From assembly GCF_004368405.1 (NCBI RefSeq), contig NZ_SBJH01000026.1, forward strand, positions 1 to 64,000: a DNA stretch of 64,000 nucleotides, given 5' to 3'. Shown piece after piece: positions 4,274-33,813 of the stretch. Made by a program: the position numbers and the translations under genes. The DNA is from Olivibacter sp. XZL3. Its GTDB lineage: Bacteria; Bacteroidota; Bacteroidia; Sphingobacteriales; Sphingobacteriaceae. The notes beneath the pieces were generated by a model. The model saw nothing but the letters and a program-made list of their open reading frames with translations. It was not told the DNA's origin and ran no database searches. How positions within the stretch are numbered: position 1 is the stretch's first letter; every line of letters starts with the position of its first letter.

Positions 4274-5641
4274 TTATAAAGAATGTTGACTACTTGAAAA
4301 ACCCAATTTCTTTAATCCTTCTTTTACCTCAGACGCACTCATAAACAGATTCCAAAGCAATCCACTCCGTTCATTTTCGATCATGACTGGAATTGGTCCT
4401 TGATCAATTGCTAAATACCGTTGAGGAAACCAGTTATCCGTTTCACTATAAGCGTCATAAAACCCATATTTACCCCACACTTTACTGCCTAATTGATCAT
4501 AAAGATAGCGGATGACCTGCATGCTATATTCCGGTGTATAAGGGTAAGAAGATAACGCAGCTGTCGGGCTGATTACGCCTAAGTCTTCTTTCGGACTATG
4601 ACCGGCATAGCCGTTTACTGAGTAACTTGCCGTTAAGCCCCAAGCGTTAGGCCCGTAGCCTTTAAAATCTTTTGGATTTTCGATGCAGTATTGCCGTTGA
4701 ATAAGCGTCTGATTTTTATTTAATTCCCAGTAATCGGCATATTCATCCTTTAATCCCCTTGGGTCTAAGCCGAGGTAGGAATAATGTGCCCAGAACATGG
4801 GACCAACAGTTCCTTCATGTCCATTGAAGCCTAAAATGATTTTATGCCCATATTGCTCTGCATCGGTTTTAATCTTTCCACTCTTTGCCCAACCCTCATG
4901 ATAAACCGCAGCAGGTACGCCATGCGTTGGAGACGCAGCCGCCAATACATACATAATCAGGCATTCATTGTAGCCCGTCACCGGAAAATTCATTTCCCAT
5001 TCATATTCGGGGCTCCAATGCCAATATAACACATTTTGATTTCCCTTGCGGTACCAGTTCCAATCGATCTCTTTCCACAATTGATCCGCTTTCGCGGCAA
5101 CCGCTTGCTCCTGTTCATTGCCGTTCGCTAAATACTGTCGTACACATAAGAGGCTTTGCGCCATAAAGGCTGTTTCTACCAGATCGCCACCATTGTCTTT
5201 CTGACCAAAGGGCTTTACTTTACCGGTAGGCCCGTGCAACCAATGGGGCCATGCACCATGAAAACGATCTGCTTTTTCCAAATAATTAACAATCTGCTCT
5301 AGCCTTTGCACACCCTCTTGCCGGGAGATAAAACCTCGTTCAATGCCTACCAAAATATTCATGACACCAAAGCCGCCGCCGCCAATGGTTACCACGTCTT
5401 GATCATTTTCCGGATACACACCGTCCAGATGAATCCGTTCACGAGCCAAACCAGAGGTCTCTTCTGCGCCTTCCCAGAAATATTGAAAGGTCTGTTGTTG
5501 TACAAGCGTCAGTAAAGAGTCGTCGGAAAGGCTGTCTGCCTGCCCGTTCACCTGCCCATCGTCTTTATTGGACGGCGATTGAGAACAGGAAAAAAGTACT
5601 GCAAAAAATGATAGAAGTAATATGTAAAAGAAATTTTTCAT
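4274..5641 (-). CDS. GH144-type (glucoamylase-like, PF10091) lipoprotein, likely beta-1,2-glucanase
   Basis: I start this at 5641 (MKNFFYIL...), six codons inside the longest frame, because it gives a clean lipoprotein signal: hydrophobic stretch, then LFSC, then a Ser/Asn/Asp-rich linker. The roughly 400-residue catalytic region has the look of the glucoamylase-like family reclassified as GH144. It opens with TFQYFWEGAEETSGLARER and goes on with GGGGFGVM, WPHWLHG, a Trp-rich YWHWSPEYEWEMNFPVTGYNE stretch, GHEGTVGPMFWAHYSYLG, and ISPTAALSSYPYTPE near the end. Characterised members (a Chitinophaga enzyme and B. thetaiotaomicron BT_3566) cut beta-1,2-glucans and release sophorose or its oligomers. 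The gene sits between susD and the GH43-like gene. The family call is good; the exact product pattern cannot be read from sequence. Confidence 0.8.
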   Translation of the reverse strand: MKNFFYILLLSFFAVLFSCSQSPSNKDDGQVNGQADSLSDDSLLTLVQQQTFQYFWEGAEETSGLARERIHLDGVYPENDQDVVTIGGGGFGVMNILVGIERGFISRQEGVQRLEQIVNYLEKADRFHGAWPHWLHGPTGKVKPFGQKDNGGDLVETAFMAQSLLCVRQYLANGNEQEQAVAAKADQLWKEIDWNWYRKGNQNVLYWHWSPEYEWEMNFPVTGYNECLIMYVLAAASPTHGVPAAVYHEGWAKSGKIKTDAEQYGHKIILGFNGHEGTVGPMFWAHYSYLGLDPRGLKDEYADYWELNKNQTLIQRQYCIENPKDFKGYGPNAWGLTASYSVNGYAGHSPKEDLGVISPTAALSSYPYTPEYSMQVIRYLYDQLGSKVWGKYGFYDAYSETDNWFPQRYLAIDQGPIPVMIENERSGLLWNLFMSASEVKEGLKKLGFSSSQHSL

Positions 5642-29436: not shown

Positions 29437-31059
29437 TTAGAGACTTCGCGAATTTTCCGCCTTCGGCTCAGCTTTGCTTAGGTTTATTTGAATGGGAAGA
29501 CTATAGGAAACGCGGACAGACTCACCATTTTTCTGACCGGGCGACCACTTCGGAGAGCCTTTTAATAAATCAATTGCCGCTTGCCCTGTTCCATAGCCTA
29601 AATCCTTAAGTACCTCGATGTCATTCAGCGTACCGTCCTTTTCGATGACGAACGACAATAAAAGCGACCCGTTAACCCCTTTCTCCTTTGCCTCTGTGGA
29701 ATAGCGGAAATTCTCTCCAATCCACTTGTAAAAGGCCCGCATCCCTCCAGGAAAACTTGGCTGCACATCCAGTTCATTAAAATCGGTCGCCTTTTGCTTA
29801 GTACTGTCTTGCCAGCGAACATCAGGTTTTTGGCTACTTGCTGATGAACCGTAACCGACGATAATAAGTTCTTCCAAGTTTGCATAACCTGCCAGCTTAG
29901 CAAGGGCAATATCAGGCTTTGCCCCAGAGCGATCTCTCCGGTGGTCTCCCTCGTCGTATTGTAGCATAAACTTCACACGAAGAAGATTTTTCCCTGTCGG
30001 CATCTCTTCCTTCACATCCGGTTGTAGTAGTACACGAATGACTTCCTTTTCCTGTTCATAGCCGAAGCTATTTACAACCTTGGTTTCTATCGAGTTATTC
30101 TTTTTCTCGAATGCAATATCAACAATCCCTTCTGCTCCATCTACTTTAGCCTTCGGCAGATATCGTATATTCGATCCCACTAACTTATAAAAATTAGTTG
30201 CTTTCTGATCGTGCCGTGCTAAATCTGCCACTTGATCGCTTACTTTAGCTGATGAAAATATCAGCATCCCAATGAACAATGGCACTACCAAAATATATTT
30301 TAGTAAGGCCGATCTTTTCGATTTGTTTTTTAAAAGCATAACAATTCTGTTTTTTATAAATGATTGATTTAGAAAGTTATTGGTTAGGACAGACGATGAT
30401 ACCGAGAAGGTACGGCCAAGTAACAATTCGGCATAGGCAATTCTATCTGCATCACTGCGGTTTATCGCTTCATCGGCGATATACTCGTGCGTTAATTTCA
30501 AGGAATCTGCTAGATAATATACCACCGGGTTGAACCAGTTGAAAACCTTAACCAACTCGACATAGAGCACGTCCAACGTGTGTAGTTGCTTTGCGTGTAC
30601 AAGCTCATGCTCCATGACTTTCGCACTACCTTCCTGCTCCGTATCCACCTTAATTGTACGAATGAAAGAATAAGCATCGCCGTAATTGTTTGTCTGCAAT
30701 CGCTTTCTTAACCGCTTCATTTTCACGGTAAGCAACAAAAATTGTATTAGCACCCCTCCTATATACACATAAATCCACAAAGGCACCCTTACCCCACTCG
30801 CCCTATTAAGCAGATTTCTGTCGGCTTCCATATCAATAGTTACCGAGTCCAAACCCGATCTTGCAACAAAGACGGTTGACGATCTAAAGGCATTTTGTAG
30901 CCATTCCAACTGAATGAGTGGAAGGATAAAAGATAACACGGCGATCCCCACCAGATAGACTCTATTGAGCTGAAAAAAGGTCTCGCGCGATAAGAAAATC
31001 CTGTAAAACCCATAAAATAGGATCAGGTAAACGTTGGCAATAATCAGATAGTTCATCAT
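29437..31059 (-). CDS. BlaR1-like M56 metallopeptidase fused to a TonB C-terminal domain
   Basis: This 540-residue membrane protein has N-terminal helices (about 3-22, 34-52, 93-113) and a zinc protease motif HELVH (151-155) with Glu192/Glu197 in HEYIADE. A further helix lies near 255-272 (LLKYILVVPLFIGMLIF). A periplasmic linker and a C-terminal TonB-like domain (about 440-530, SFPGGMRAFYKWIGENFRYS to KWSPGQKNGESVRVSYSLPI) follow. BlaR1/MecR1 relatives sense a signal outside and cut a BlaI repressor inside. Here the penicillin-binding sensor is absent and a TonB domain stands in its place, a common Bacteroidota design. It follows the blaI gene by 25 nt, so the pair forms one operon. Confidence 0.9.
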   Translation of the reverse strand: MMNYLIIANVYLILFYGFYRIFLSRETFFQLNRVYLVGIAVLSFILPLIQLEWLQNAFRSSTVFVARSGLDSVTIDMEADRNLLNRASGVRVPLWIYVYIGGVLIQFLLLTVKMKRLRKRLQTNNYGDAYSFIRTIKVDTEQEGSAKVMEHELVHAKQLHTLDVLYVELVKVFNWFNPVVYYLADSLKLTHEYIADEAINRSDADRIAYAELLLGRTFSVSSSVLTNNFLNQSFIKNRIVMLLKNKSKRSALLKYILVVPLFIGMLIFSSAKVSDQVADLARHDQKATNFYKLVGSNIRYLPKAKVDGAEGIVDIAFEKKNNSIETKVVNSFGYEQEKEVIRVLLQPDVKEEMPTGKNLLRVKFMLQYDEGDHRRDRSGAKPDIALAKLAGYANLEELIIVGYGSSASSQKPDVRWQDSTKQKATDFNELDVQPSFPGGMRAFYKWIGENFRYSTEAKEKGVNGSLLLSFVIEKDGTLNDIEVLKDLGYGTGQAAIDLLKGSPKWSPGQKNGESVRVSYSLPIQINLSKAEPKAENSRSL

Positions 31060-31084: not shown

Positions 31085-31456
31085 CTATTTCTTCTTCGCT
31101 TTCTCCAATAAGCGTAATAGCTCGTCCGCCTCCTTTACATTCAACTTATTCTCTTGAAGGAAAAAAGAAAGCATACTCCGCGGAGAGTTGTCGAAGTAAC
31201 CGGACAGCAATTTACCCGCTGCAAACTCTTTATAAGTATCCTTACTTATTTTCGCAAAATAGCGGTAGCTTTTACCAAAACTTTCATGCCCGACAAAGCC
31301 TTTGGTTTCGAGTATGCGAATAATGGTAGAGACGGTGTTATATGCCGGCTTCGGCTCATCCATCTGCTCAATGATGTCTTTCACAAAAGCTTTTTCCAGC
31401 TTCCAGAGCTCTTGCATTACCTGCTCCTCAGCTCGCGTTAATTCCCTGATTTCCAT
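31085..31456 (-). CDS. BlaI/MecI-family transcriptional repressor
   Basis: I start it at 31456 (MEIRELTRAEEQVMQELWKL, 123 residues), dropping seven residues of the longest frame because the promoter predicts a start near 31470. The winged helix (about 8-75) shows VKDIIEQM and YNTVSTIIRILETKGFVGHE, the recognition-helix segment of this family. The C-terminal part holds the dimerisation region and FLQENKLNVKEADELLRLLE. It should repress its own operon with the M56-TonB gene until cleaved. Two operators lie in its promoter. Confidence 0.93.
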   Translation of the reverse strand: MEIRELTRAEEQVMQELWKLEKAFVKDIIEQMDEPKPAYNTVSTIIRILETKGFVGHESFGKSYRYFAKISKDTYKEFAAGKLLSGYFDNSPRSMLSFFLQENKLNVKEADELLRLLEKAKKK

Positions 31457-31476
31457 ATTGAATAACATTAATAACA

Positions 31477-31521
31477 CAAAATTAAAACTAATATATTAGT
31501 TTTGCAACTATTTTTTTAGTT
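31477..31521 (-). promoter_or_regulatory. blaI promoter with two tandem operators
   Basis: On the minus strand TTG (31505-31507) and TAATTTTG (31477-31484) are 20 nt apart, a good Bacteroidota promoter. Between them sits AACTA-N6-TAGTT (31486-31501), the core of a perfect 20-bp palindrome at 31484-31503. A second AACTA-N6-TAGTT (31506-31521) overlaps and precedes the -33 box. The two copies start exactly 20 bp apart, two helical turns, so two dimers could bind the same face and block the polymerase. Confidence 0.8.
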
Positions 31522-31526
31522 ATTGT

Positions 31527-31557
31527 GGAGAAAAAGAAAGCCCATCGAAAAATGGGC
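31527..31557 (-). terminator. minus-strand terminator after the 58-residue gene
   Basis: GCCCAT/ATGGGC (31540-31545 with 31552-31557) encloses a 6-nt loop. On the minus strand the stem is followed by TTTCTTTTTCTCC. It would end a minus-strand transcript just before the blaI promoter. Confidence 0.65.
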
Positions 31558-31625
31558 CTATAGATATCATGAACACAAACCCCTTGGCTGTGCCTTCTGG
31601 CGGAGCGCTCTTCTGTCCGGTAATG

Positions 31626-31802
31626 CTAGAATAAGAGGATCCTTACATTTAAATACTTCGGAATACTTAAAAAAGACGCATTTAACTCAACCGATGGTTC
31701 CATCACTTCCCTGTCGACATGGACACAAATCACCAAGGCCGCTATCAATATAGGAATCAATAACAACAAGAAGGGGGAAATATTTGATAAAAGCCTTTTC
31801 AT
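31626..31802 (-). CDS. small single-pass membrane protein, 58 residues, unrecognised
   Basis: ATG at 31802 to TAG at 31626-31628 encodes 58 residues. A short basic start (MKRLLSN) leads into one strongly hydrophobic segment (about 10-27, PFLLLLIPILIAALVICV). A polar tail of about 30 residues contains HVDREVMEPSVELNASF and ends LNVRILLF. A hairpin terminator on the same strand follows at 31527-31557, which supports transcription of this strand. I recognise no family. No clear Shine-Dalgarno or TAnnTTTG element was found upstream. It stands between blaI and the LytS-type kinase gene, transcribed away from the kinase. The gap 31803-32001 upstream holds nothing else I can identify. Confidence 0.5.
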   Translation of the reverse strand: MKRLLSNISPFLLLLIPILIAALVICVHVDREVMEPSVELNASFLSIPKYLNVRILLF

Positions 31803-32001
31803 ATTTCTAGGGTTTGCGTGTTAACTCTTATTTGATTATTTTACAAATAAACGAGTGTTTTCTATTTTATTAAAGTTTTTTAGACTAACACGTCATATTT
31901 ATAGACCAACTGGCTACCTTTCTATGTCGCCGATAGTAAGGCGTTCATCGCTCAGCCCGGGCTGTTTGTCTATCAAAACGCTAAAAGTGTTATAGAAAGG
32001 A

Positions 32002-32009
32002 TATATTTG
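32002..32009 (+). promoter_or_regulatory. -7 promoter element for the kinase-regulator pair
   Basis: TATATTTG matches TAnnTTTG and lies 59 nt before the kinase start at 32069. No TTTG is found at the expected -33 distance. Confidence 0.5.
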
Positions 32010-32068: not shown

Positions 32069-33076
32069 ATGAAAAAAAGCCATATTCTTTATCACATCTT
32101 GGTTTGGCTTGCTTTAGCCACTCTATTGTTTTTAACCAATGACAACAAAAGCAGTGTTCCTCACCTACTCTTTTATCTCCTATTTACCGTATTTAATGTA
32201 GGCGTTTTCTATCTCACTTACTTTTTCATCGCTCCATACTTCATTGGAGATAAGCGTTATTTGTCGGGCACCATTATTTCTATATGCTGCCTACTCGCCA
32301 GCTCCTTTATCAAATTAACAATAGCAGTCTATAACGAGCCCATTCTTATGCGCTATGGGGATCATCTCGAGCGGACCTTGAGTAAAGAGGAGTATTTCAC
32401 CTCTGCTACTATTATTACCTTGTTTTTTATGTTACTGGGCTATGCCTTTAGACTGGCCACCAATTCTTATCAAATGGAGCAGGCAAGGAAGACCTTAGAA
32501 ACAGAGAAGCTAAACGCGGAACTCGCTTTCTTAAAGACCCAGATCAATCCACATTTTCTTTTTAATTCACTTAATAACATTTATTCACTCGCTTACCAGA
32601 AATCAGATAAAGCGCCCGAAGCAATTTTAAGGCTATCTGAGATTATGCGCTACATGCTGTATGAGAGCAACGACGAAAAAGTATTATTAGAAGACGAGGT
32701 GAACTATCTTGAAAACTACATAGAACTTCAAAAGCTGCGGGTTAAGGAACAAGTGTATCTGGATCTTCATATAAACATCGATAATTACCAACACCGCATC
32801 ATGCCACTGCTTGTGATCTCCTTTTTGGAAAACGTTTTTAAACATGGCGTGGCTACCGACAAGGAGCATCCTATCCGCATTACTGTTGAAGTCCTAAACA
32901 GCCGCTTATACTTTAAGGCGCAGAACAAGAAAAACAAACTGAATAAAGATAAATCCGGGGGAATTGGACTCACCAACCTTAAAAGAAGGCTGGAGCTTGG
33001 CTATCCTGATAAGCACACCTTTATCATTCAAGATAACGAAGATTATTACAGCAGCGAATTATTTGTATATTTATAA
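32069..33076 (+). CDS. LytS/YehU-type membrane sensor histidine kinase
   Basis: This 335-residue kinase has four membrane helices in the first 130 residues (for example ILYHILVWLALATLLFL, LLFYLLFTVFNVGVFYL) with almost no periplasmic loop. A coiled stretch and the His_kinase domain with His162 in TQINPHFLFNSLNNIYSLAY follow. The ATP-binding part has SFLENVFKHGV (N box) and GGIGLTNLKRRL (G box). The LytTR regulator starts 17 nt downstream, its obvious partner. Such pairs in Bacteroidota control varied targets; the signal is unknown. Confidence 0.92.
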   Translation: MKKSHILYHILVWLALATLLFLTNDNKSSVPHLLFYLLFTVFNVGVFYLTYFFIAPYFIGDKRYLSGTIISICCLLASSFIKLTIAVYNEPILMRYGDHLERTLSKEEYFTSATIITLFFMLLGYAFRLATNSYQMEQARKTLETEKLNAELAFLKTQINPHFLFNSLNNIYSLAYQKSDKAPEAILRLSEIMRYMLYESNDEKVLLEDEVNYLENYIELQKLRVKEQVYLDLHINIDNYQHRIMPLLVISFLENVFKHGVATDKEHPIRITVEVLNSRLYFKAQNKKNKLNKDKSGGIGLTNLKRRLELGYPDKHTFIIQDNEDYYSSELFVYL

Positions 33077-33093: not shown

Positions 33094-33813
33094 ATGATAC
33101 GATGTTTAGTAGTTGATGATGAACCCCTGGCATTGGACATTATAGCGGATTATATTCAGAAAGTGCCCGAGCTCACCTTATCGGCAACGACAACAAGCGC
33201 CATCGAAGGCCTAGGCTTGGTACAGCAGGGAGTCATCGATTTAGTCTTTCTAGACATACAAATGCCCGAACTAACCGGTATCCAGTTTTTGAAGATTATT
33301 AACGGAAAATGCGACGTCATTCTCACCACCGCTTATCCTCAATACGCCCTTGAAGGCTATGAACTGAACGTTACTGATTACCTGTTAAAACCAATCGCTT
33401 TCGACAGGTTTTACCGATCTATTCAGAAAGTGACCAACCAAAAGAACCACTTTCAAAAAAACCAGCAAGCCGAGTTACAGAACCACAATAAAAATAATGA
33501 GTTCATTTTTGTAAAAACTGAGCATAAGATTCAGCGAATTGACTACGATGACGTCTACTATATTGAAGGACTGAAAGACTATATCTCCATTTATACCTCG
33601 AATGAAAGGATTATTACCCTCCAAAATATGAAAAGGATGGAGGAAACACTCCCTGAAGAACGATTTATCCGTGTCCATAAATCGTACATTGTTGCTCTCG
33701 AGAAAATAGAAAGCATAGAGCGTGGCAGGATTTCATTAAAAGAAAAGCTTATCCCAATAGGGGATACGTACCGGGAATCATTCTTCAAACGCATCGGCGA
33801 AAAGTATAGCTAG
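33094..33813 (+). CDS. LytTR-family response regulator
   Basis: This 239-residue regulator pairs a receiver domain with a LytTR DNA-binding domain. The receiver acid pocket is VVDDEP near the start, the phosphorylated Asp54 is in LVFLDIQMPE, and Lys of LLKPIAF is near 105-111. The LytTR part (about 135-239) has FVKTEHKIQRIDYDDVYYIEG, a RFIRVHKSYIVAL segment and IPIGDTYRE. It receives phosphate from the kinase encoded just upstream. The gene ends 14 nt from the convergent S41 protease gene. Confidence 0.94.
   Translation: MIRCLVVDDEPLALDIIADYIQKVPELTLSATTTSAIEGLGLVQQGVIDLVFLDIQMPELTGIQFLKIINGKCDVILTTAYPQYALEGYELNVTDYLLKPIAFDRFYRSIQKVTNQKNHFQKNQQAELQNHNKNNEFIFVKTEHKIQRIDYDDVYYIEGLKDYISIYTSNERIITLQNMKRMEETLPEERFIRVHKSYIVALEKIESIERGRISLKEKLIPIGDTYRESFFKRIGEKYS

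What the first reader, a model, noticed from the sequence alone, without database searches (positions are those of the whole stretch)
31527..31802. Unannotated 58-residue membrane protein with its own terminator
A minus-strand frame with a basic start, one hydrophobic helix and a polar tail is followed by a same-strand terminator just before the blaI promoter. Small proteins of this shape are easily missed and often regulate a membrane partner, here perhaps the nearby kinase or M56 protein.
Basis: partly seen in the sequence, partly recalled or inferred. Interest (0 to 1): 0.55.

Follow-up and report, generated by a model that had tools for sequence, protein, structure and literature searches.

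The report
Tiny membrane protein with dedicated control
A real, previously unclassified 58-residue membrane protein sits beside a sensor kinase and regulator pair that appears, from a rigidly conserved DNA switch, to exist mainly to turn this one small gene on across a whole family of soil bacteria.

Summary
The 58-codon minus-strand frame (31626-31802) is a real gene: homologues lie in 296 of 400 family genomes, and Olivibacter copies show purifying selection. A terminator follows it in all 4 Olivibacter genomes examined.

The gene belongs with the divergent LytS-type kinase (32069-33076) and LytTR response regulator (33094-33813), not with BlaI/M56. Upstream lies a LytTR-type direct repeat, GTTNGTCTA-N12-GTTAGTCTAA. 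It scores at least 14/18 in 60 of 68 hand-picked genomes, and in all 60 a promoter-like TTTG starts exactly 32 bp after it. In five Olivibacter genomes it is the only site with fewer than three mismatches. The repeat stays where the regulator lies elsewhere (10 of 10) and is missing where no regulator orthologue was found (6 of 6); one genome with a broken regulator keeps it.

The small gene survives in genomes without the regulator, so I read it as the system's membrane effector rather than only a kinase feedback inhibitor. In 20 of 68 loci an ABC ATPase gene follows directly. The regulation is well supported by sequence; the biochemical role is inferred. No Pfam or NCBIfam family matched the members scanned.

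The parts
31626..31802 (-). 58-aa single-helix membrane protein gene (K-K/R...SPFLLLLIP motif)
31527..31560 (-). intrinsic terminator of the small gene (stem 31559-31538, then T-rich tail)
31880..31910 (-). LytTR-type operator: GTTGGTCTA (31910-31902) - 12 bp - GTTAGTCTAA (31889-31880)
31844..31851 (-). -7-like promoter element TTTATTTG (consensus TANNTTTG has A at the second place); its TTTG starts exactly 32 bp after the operator
31943..31972 (+). second 21-bp-period repeat facing the kinase gene: GTTCATCGC - 12 bp - GTTTGTCTA (possible autoregulation)
32002..32009 (+). TATATTTG, likely -7 element of the kinase-regulator promoter
   Evidence: consensus TANNTTTG from PMC6847099 passages
32069..33076 (+). 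LytS-type sensor histidine kinase (PF06580)
33094..33813 (+). response regulator, REC + LytTR
31484..31503 (.). neighbour, not part of the system: perfect 20-bp dyad AAAACTAATATATTAGTTTT, likely BlaI operator, on the far side of the terminator
31085..31477 (-). neighbour: BlaI-type repressor (Penicillinase_R)
29437..31059 (-). neighbour: M56 peptidase-like protein with TonB_C domain

Best explanation
The small gene is the dedicated output of the divergent LytS-type kinase / LytTR regulator pair. Inferred sequence of events: the kinase (hydrophobic N-terminal part, read by eye) senses a membrane or envelope cue; the phosphorylated regulator binds the two direct half-sites at 31880-31910 and recruits RNA polymerase to the promoter whose TTTG lies 32 bp downstream; a short mRNA encoding only the 58-aa protein is made and stopped at the terminator; the protein inserts in the inner membrane with the basic N-terminus inside and the polar tail outside. 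A weaker repeat facing the kinase may give autoregulation. The protein itself is most likely the effector, acting through its conserved SPFLLLLIP membrane segment on a membrane partner; in 20 of 68 loci an ABC ATPase gene follows it directly. Shown by sequence comparison: the gene, its selection, the repeat, the fixed promoter spacing, and the tracking of the repeat with the regulator. Inferred: binding, activation, topology, effector role, signal.
For: Repeat score at least 14/18 in 60 of 68 genomes; TTTG at offset 32 in all 60, any other offset within the first 60 bp in at most 6. Repeat in 48 of 50 loci with an adjacent kinase, in 10 of 10 where the regulator orthologue lies elsewhere, in 0 of 6 where no orthologue was found; also in G025 (broken regulator) and G013 (regulator not looked for). 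Fisher p = 3e-7 for 58/60 against 0/6, those two left out, no phylogenetic correction. All 18 of 18 genomes with the regulator orthologue have the small gene, against 8 of 21 without, one genome not examined. Exactly one 0-mismatch site per genome in 5 of 5 Olivibacter genomes, none with 1-2 mismatches. Third-position bias of substitutions. LytTR regulators bind two imperfect direct repeats about 12 bp apart; AlgR core CCGTTCGTC (PMC4064291, passages). In another family the same unit, with one mismatch, stands before what by eye is a kinase-LytTR-type regulator pair (L213).
Against: No expression or binding data. Two loci with an adjacent kinase have weak repeats (12/18: G064; and G095, where no TTTG lies at 32 bp). 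G025 keeps the repeat with a broken regulator. The -7 element reads TTnnTTTG rather than TANNTTTG. The composite pattern (up to 1 mismatch) also matches 33 of 380 class genomes outside the family, against 12 for the backward control by my count; 15 of the 28 such sites read lie inside coding genes. A looser repeat pattern gave 41 listed sites in 60 genomes, 18 at small genes, the other 23 no more than the backward control's 25. The 68 genomes were hand-picked to cover genera and are related. The effector role rests only on retention without the regulator and on the ABC neighbours. A regulon of one is shown only at this match stringency.
Confidence: 0.7

Rival explanations
1. MgrB-like feedback: the regulator switches on the small protein, which binds the kinase's membrane domain and damps it.
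For: Single-helix protein with a repeat tied to the regulator, divergent to the kinase in 50 of 68 loci; precedent MgrB/PhoQ (PMC2789325 and PMC8404706, starts of abstracts in a search listing).
Against: The gene is kept in genomes where no regulator orthologue was found (G009, G033, G071, G006, G030, G068, G020) or where it is broken (G025), so it must have another use at least there.
Confidence: 0.3
2. Peptide signal precursor: the tail is released and exported (by the ABC-2 transporter where present) and the kinase senses it, as in peptide quorum sensing with LytTR regulators.
For: LytTR regulators include AgrA, PlnC and PlnD (PMC4064291 passages; that these serve peptide signalling is recalled); an ABC ATPase gene directly downstream in 20 of 68; the tail varies more than the helix.
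Against: Conservation is in the membrane segment (P17 in 68 of 68, P10 in 67, F11 in 64, L14 in 62), not the tail; the ABC ATPase was not found in 5 of 5 Olivibacter genomes at E 1e-60; retained without the regulator. A maturation peptidase was not searched for.
Confidence: 0.1
3. Accessory subunit of the neighbouring ABC-2 transporter, kept as a relic where the transporter was lost.
For: Overlapping or closely adjacent reading frames with the ABC ATPase in 20 of 68 loci; ABC_tran and ABC2_membrane_4 domains.
Against: Olivibacter shows no orthologue at E 1e-60 in 5 of 5 genomes, yet the small gene is under purifying selection there, so it is not a relic.
Confidence: 0.15
4. The small protein acts on or with the BlaI/M56 pair.
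For: BlaI/M56 often lie in the same neighbourhood, even where the kinase has moved away.
Against: In Olivibacter a terminator and a separate dyad lie between them; distance 134 bp to 4.6 kb; not seen nearby in 46 of 68 loci, four of which had short flanks.
Confidence: 0.05

Closest known systems
BtsS/BtsR and YpdA/YpdB of E. coli (LytS/LytTR systems with one target gene each)
   Same: LytS-type kinase plus REC-LytTR regulator; each regulator controls one single target gene, for a membrane transporter (PMC5552118 passages, and abstracts in listing).
   Different: Targets there are transporters; here a 58-aa single-helix protein. The kinase here gave no 5TM-5TMR_LYT hit in the Pfam scan.
LytTR Regulatory Systems (HdrRM, BrsRM)
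   Same: 9-bp direct repeats mostly 12 bp apart just upstream of the promoter, a membrane protein, and sometimes ABC transporter genes (PMC6193735 passages).
   Different: There a LytTR regulator shares an operon with a membrane inhibitor, distinct from two-component systems; here a full two-component system faces a divergent small gene.
MgrB-PhoQ/PhoP
   Same: Very small membrane protein made under a two-component system (PMC2789325, PMC8404706, starts of abstracts in listing).
   Different: No sequence relation shown; this protein persists without the regulator.

Membership tests
LytS/LytTR two-component system with a dedicated target | His_kinase (PF06580) sensor plus REC-LytTR regulator | tested here: met
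   PF06580 4.9e-27; Response_reg 1.7e-17; LytTR 2.9e-20
LytS/LytTR two-component system with a dedicated target | 5TM-5TMR_LYT input domain in the kinase | tested here: not met
   no such hit at E <= 0.1; so a LytS-type relative, not a LytS-family member in the strict sense
LytS/LytTR two-component system with a dedicated target | direct repeats about 12 bp apart before the target promoter | tested here: met
   (60 of 68 loci)
LytS/LytTR two-component system with a dedicated target | single target gene | tested here: inconclusive
   by sequence, 1 site with <3 mismatches in each of 5 Olivibacter genomes; weaker kinase-facing sites and no binding data
LytTR Regulatory System (LRS) | LytTR regulator in one operon with its membrane inhibitor, no two-component kinase | tested here: not met
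   kinase and REC domain present; small gene divergent
MgrB-type kinase inhibitor | binds and inhibits the kinase | not testable with these tools
   needs a binding or activity assay
MgrB-type kinase inhibitor | occurs only with its two-component system | tested here: not met
   8 of 21 examined genomes without the regulator orthologue still have the gene
any curated protein family | Pfam or NCBIfam match | tested here: not met
   Pfam: 17 members, no hit shared by two, best single 0.012; NCBIfam: 0 hits for 4 members

The most novel reading that the evidence does not exclude
A family-wide, undescribed signalling module of Sphingobacteriaceae: a two-component system with a near one-gene regulon whose conserved output is a new family of roughly 55-70-residue single-helix membrane proteins that are themselves the effectors of an envelope response.
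Probability: 0.45. Interest if true: 0.65.

Novelty: new variant of a known kind. Interest (0 to 1): 0.55.

Why it matters
Kinase-LytTR pairs are common in Bacteroidetes and most have no known target (recalled). Here sequence alone links one such pair to one gene, gives the operator and its exact promoter spacing, and names the product. That makes both the regulator and an unclassified small-protein family directly testable in harmless laboratory strains, and the operator-to-promoter rule may help find targets of other LytTR regulators in the phylum.

Tried and rejected
Small RNA reading: Rfam gave two sub-threshold matches; the one over this region scores 20 bits against a gathering score of 95. 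NdhO and FtsL_2 Pfam hits: single members, 0.029 and 0.091. Heyndrickxia locus L061 encodes a 205-aa protein with a chance motif; dropped. Links to BlaI/M56: see rivals. ABC-2 transporter as a universal partner: rejected, not found in Olivibacter. Sites outside the family: of 29 loci read, one gave no hit, 15 lie inside coding genes, and in none did I recognise a member of the small family downstream; a profile search of 197 class genomes found 6 at E 1e-4, all in the same family; the weak class-level matches (E 0.15 or worse) I take as chance. The structure gave only one helix, so no fold search was made. Kinase-small-protein covariation was not tried. The first profile search scored at most 16 candidates per genome, so absences there are not proof. 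The kinase-facing part crashed and was redone; that repeat has no shuffle control. Chance level of the small-gene repeat: 46 of 3100 windows of 350 bp score 14 or more, real sites included.

Full report
What is there. The minus-strand frame 31802-31626 encodes MKRLLSNISPFLLLLIPILIAALVICVHVDREVMEPSVELNASFLSIPKYLNVRILLF. Named relatives place the window in Olivibacter, Sphingobacteriaceae (O. jilunii 79%, O. domesticus 67%). A terminator stem lies at 31559-31538 on the same strand. The four Olivibacter genomes examined (G000, G001, G003, G004) each have a hairpin with a T-rich tail after the gene, with different sequences; G002 was not examined and no shuffles were made. Beyond it is a perfect 20-bp dyad (31484-31503) before blaI, also perfect but with another centre in G001 and mostly kept in G004, the likely BlaI operator. 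So the small gene looks like its own transcription unit.

Is it a gene? Homologues at E 1.9e-23 to 3.1e-21 occur in three of four congeners; the fourth, G002, was found by profile at 1.5e-4. The profile matched 296 of 400 family genomes at E 0.01, in 18 of 22 genera. Of 197 class genomes 6 matched at E 1e-4, all in the same family. Between G000 and G001, dN is 0.136 and dS 1.82, with 29 of 44 differences in third positions (p = 1e-5); between G003 and G004, 33 of 46 (p = 1e-7). dS could not be computed in 4 of 6 pairs, so the ratio is only indicative. In an alignment of 68 members M1 and P17 are invariant, P10 is in 67, F11 and K2 in 64, L14 in 62, S9 in 57, while the tail is variable. The prediction is one helix, residues 10-32, and a low-confidence tail.

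Whom does it belong to? I took one locus from each of 68 genomes, hand-picked to cover 17 of the 18 matching genera plus one more genome (G013), and including genomes found to lack the regulator; it is not a random draw. The kinase is divergent and adjacent in 50 of 68. BlaI was seen downstream on the same strand within 6 kb in 22; four loci had only about 1.5 kb of flank. An ABC ATPase gene follows within 150 bp of the small frame in 20. Among the 18 loci with that ATPase (two of them one genome), 16 also show the ABC-2 permease; domains are ABC_tran and ABC2_membrane_4. Olivibacter shows no such ATPase at E 1e-60 in 5 of 5 genomes.

The control site. Upstream of the small gene is GTTNGTCTA-N12-GTTAGTCTAA. 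It scores 14 or more of 18 in 60 of 68 loci; 46 of 3100 windows of 350 bp reach that score in the same regions, real sites included. In all 60 the tetramer TTTG starts exactly 32 bp after the repeat; no other offset in the first 60 bp has more than 6. TTTG is the core of the Bacteroidetes -7 element TANNTTTG (PMC6847099, passages), though here the element reads TTnnTTTG. LytTR regulators bind two imperfect direct repeats of 8-13 bp about 12 bp apart, and the AlgR core is CCGTTCGTC (PMC4064291, passages); LRS repeats are also mostly 12 bp apart, often 10 bp upstream of -35 (PMC6193735, passages). A second repeat with the same 21-bp period faces the kinase gene at 31943-31972, followed by TATATTTG at 32002-32009. 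Over 50 loci the best such site scores 12 or 13 of 14 in 41, and TTTG or TTTA lies 32-34 bp after it 36 times (a locus could count twice); this is less sharp than for the small gene and has no shuffle control. It suggests autoregulation.

Does the site track the regulator? In a search of 40 genomes the regulator orthologue (65-100% identity) was found in 18, and all 18 have the small gene; of the other 22, 8 have it, 13 do not, and one (G027) was not examined for it (Fisher p = 2.6e-5). In ten genomes of genera g7, g12 and g20 the orthologue is elsewhere in the genome; the repeat is still before the small gene in 10 of 10. G025 has a broken regulator, no kinase match, and keeps gene and repeat, a possible snapshot of loss. 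Results against: G064 and G095 have an adjacent kinase but weak repeats (12/18), and G095 has no TTTG at 32 bp. G013 has the repeat, but its regulator was not looked for. G068's site was not inspected.

How many targets? In 5 of 5 Olivibacter genomes there is exactly one site with no mismatch, before the small gene, and none with one or two; 13 further sites have three mismatches, against 61 backward-control matches. A looser repeat pattern in 60 relatives gave 41 listed sites, of which 18 lie at a small gene; the other 23 are no more than the 25 of the backward control (my counts). The composite pattern (repeat plus TTTG at 32 bp, up to 1 mismatch) occurs in 13 of 15 family genomes, once each except G018 with a second site; the two without it belong to genus g16 and have no small-gene match. 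For 8 of the 13 I could check from the lists that a site lies at the small gene. Outside the family 33 of 380 genomes match, against 12 for the backward control; of 28 such sites read, 15 lie inside coding genes, and one (L213) stands before what by eye is another kinase and regulator pair.

Function. The gene persists in genomes without the regulator, so it has a use beyond damping that kinase. I therefore favour an effector in the membrane, with the ABC-2 transporter as an occasional partner. This last step is inference. BtsR and YpdB of E. coli each control one single target gene (PMC5552118, passages), encoding a transporter; this system has the same logic with a much smaller product.

Literature. 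Seven searches on LytTR, Bacteroidetes, small membrane proteins and the genera showed no description of this gene or pairing in the listings I saw (one search listed 10 of 45 papers, one search listed 10 of 12); the library holds only open-licence PubMed Central papers. No paper was read whole: of PMC4064291, PMC6193735, PMC5552118, PMC11237479 and PMC6847099 I saw passages.

Noticed in passing
window 31484-31503: Perfect 20-bp dyad AAAACTAATATATTAGTTTT before blaI; in G001 the centre differs but the dyad stays perfect, in G004 it is mostly kept: a likely BlaI operator.
   Followed up: partly
window 29437-31059: BlaR1-like M56 protein carries a TonB C-terminal domain; M56 and BlaI homologues recur near the small gene in many of the family loci.
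   Followed up: no
L213 (G708, another family) around 1500: The same 21-bp-period repeat with TTTG at the same spacing (one mismatch) stands before frames that by eye are a kinase and a response regulator, suggesting the promoter rule holds for other systems of the class.
   Followed up: partly
L196 (G025) 4480-5170: LytTR regulator homologue broken by stops and a frame change, no kinase match, BlaI and M56 matches also decayed, while the small gene and its repeat are intact.
   Followed up: partly
L100 and L018 (genus g3): A distant version of the small gene, without the repeat, lies among other genes; its C-terminus resembles that of the g15 members.
   Followed up: no
L044 (G031) around 1500: In Parapedobacter another GTTNGTCTA-type repeat with further half-sites lies about 150 bp upstream of a frame with a signal-peptide-like start, though inside an opposite-strand 171-codon frame; a possible extra LytTR target.
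   Followed up: no
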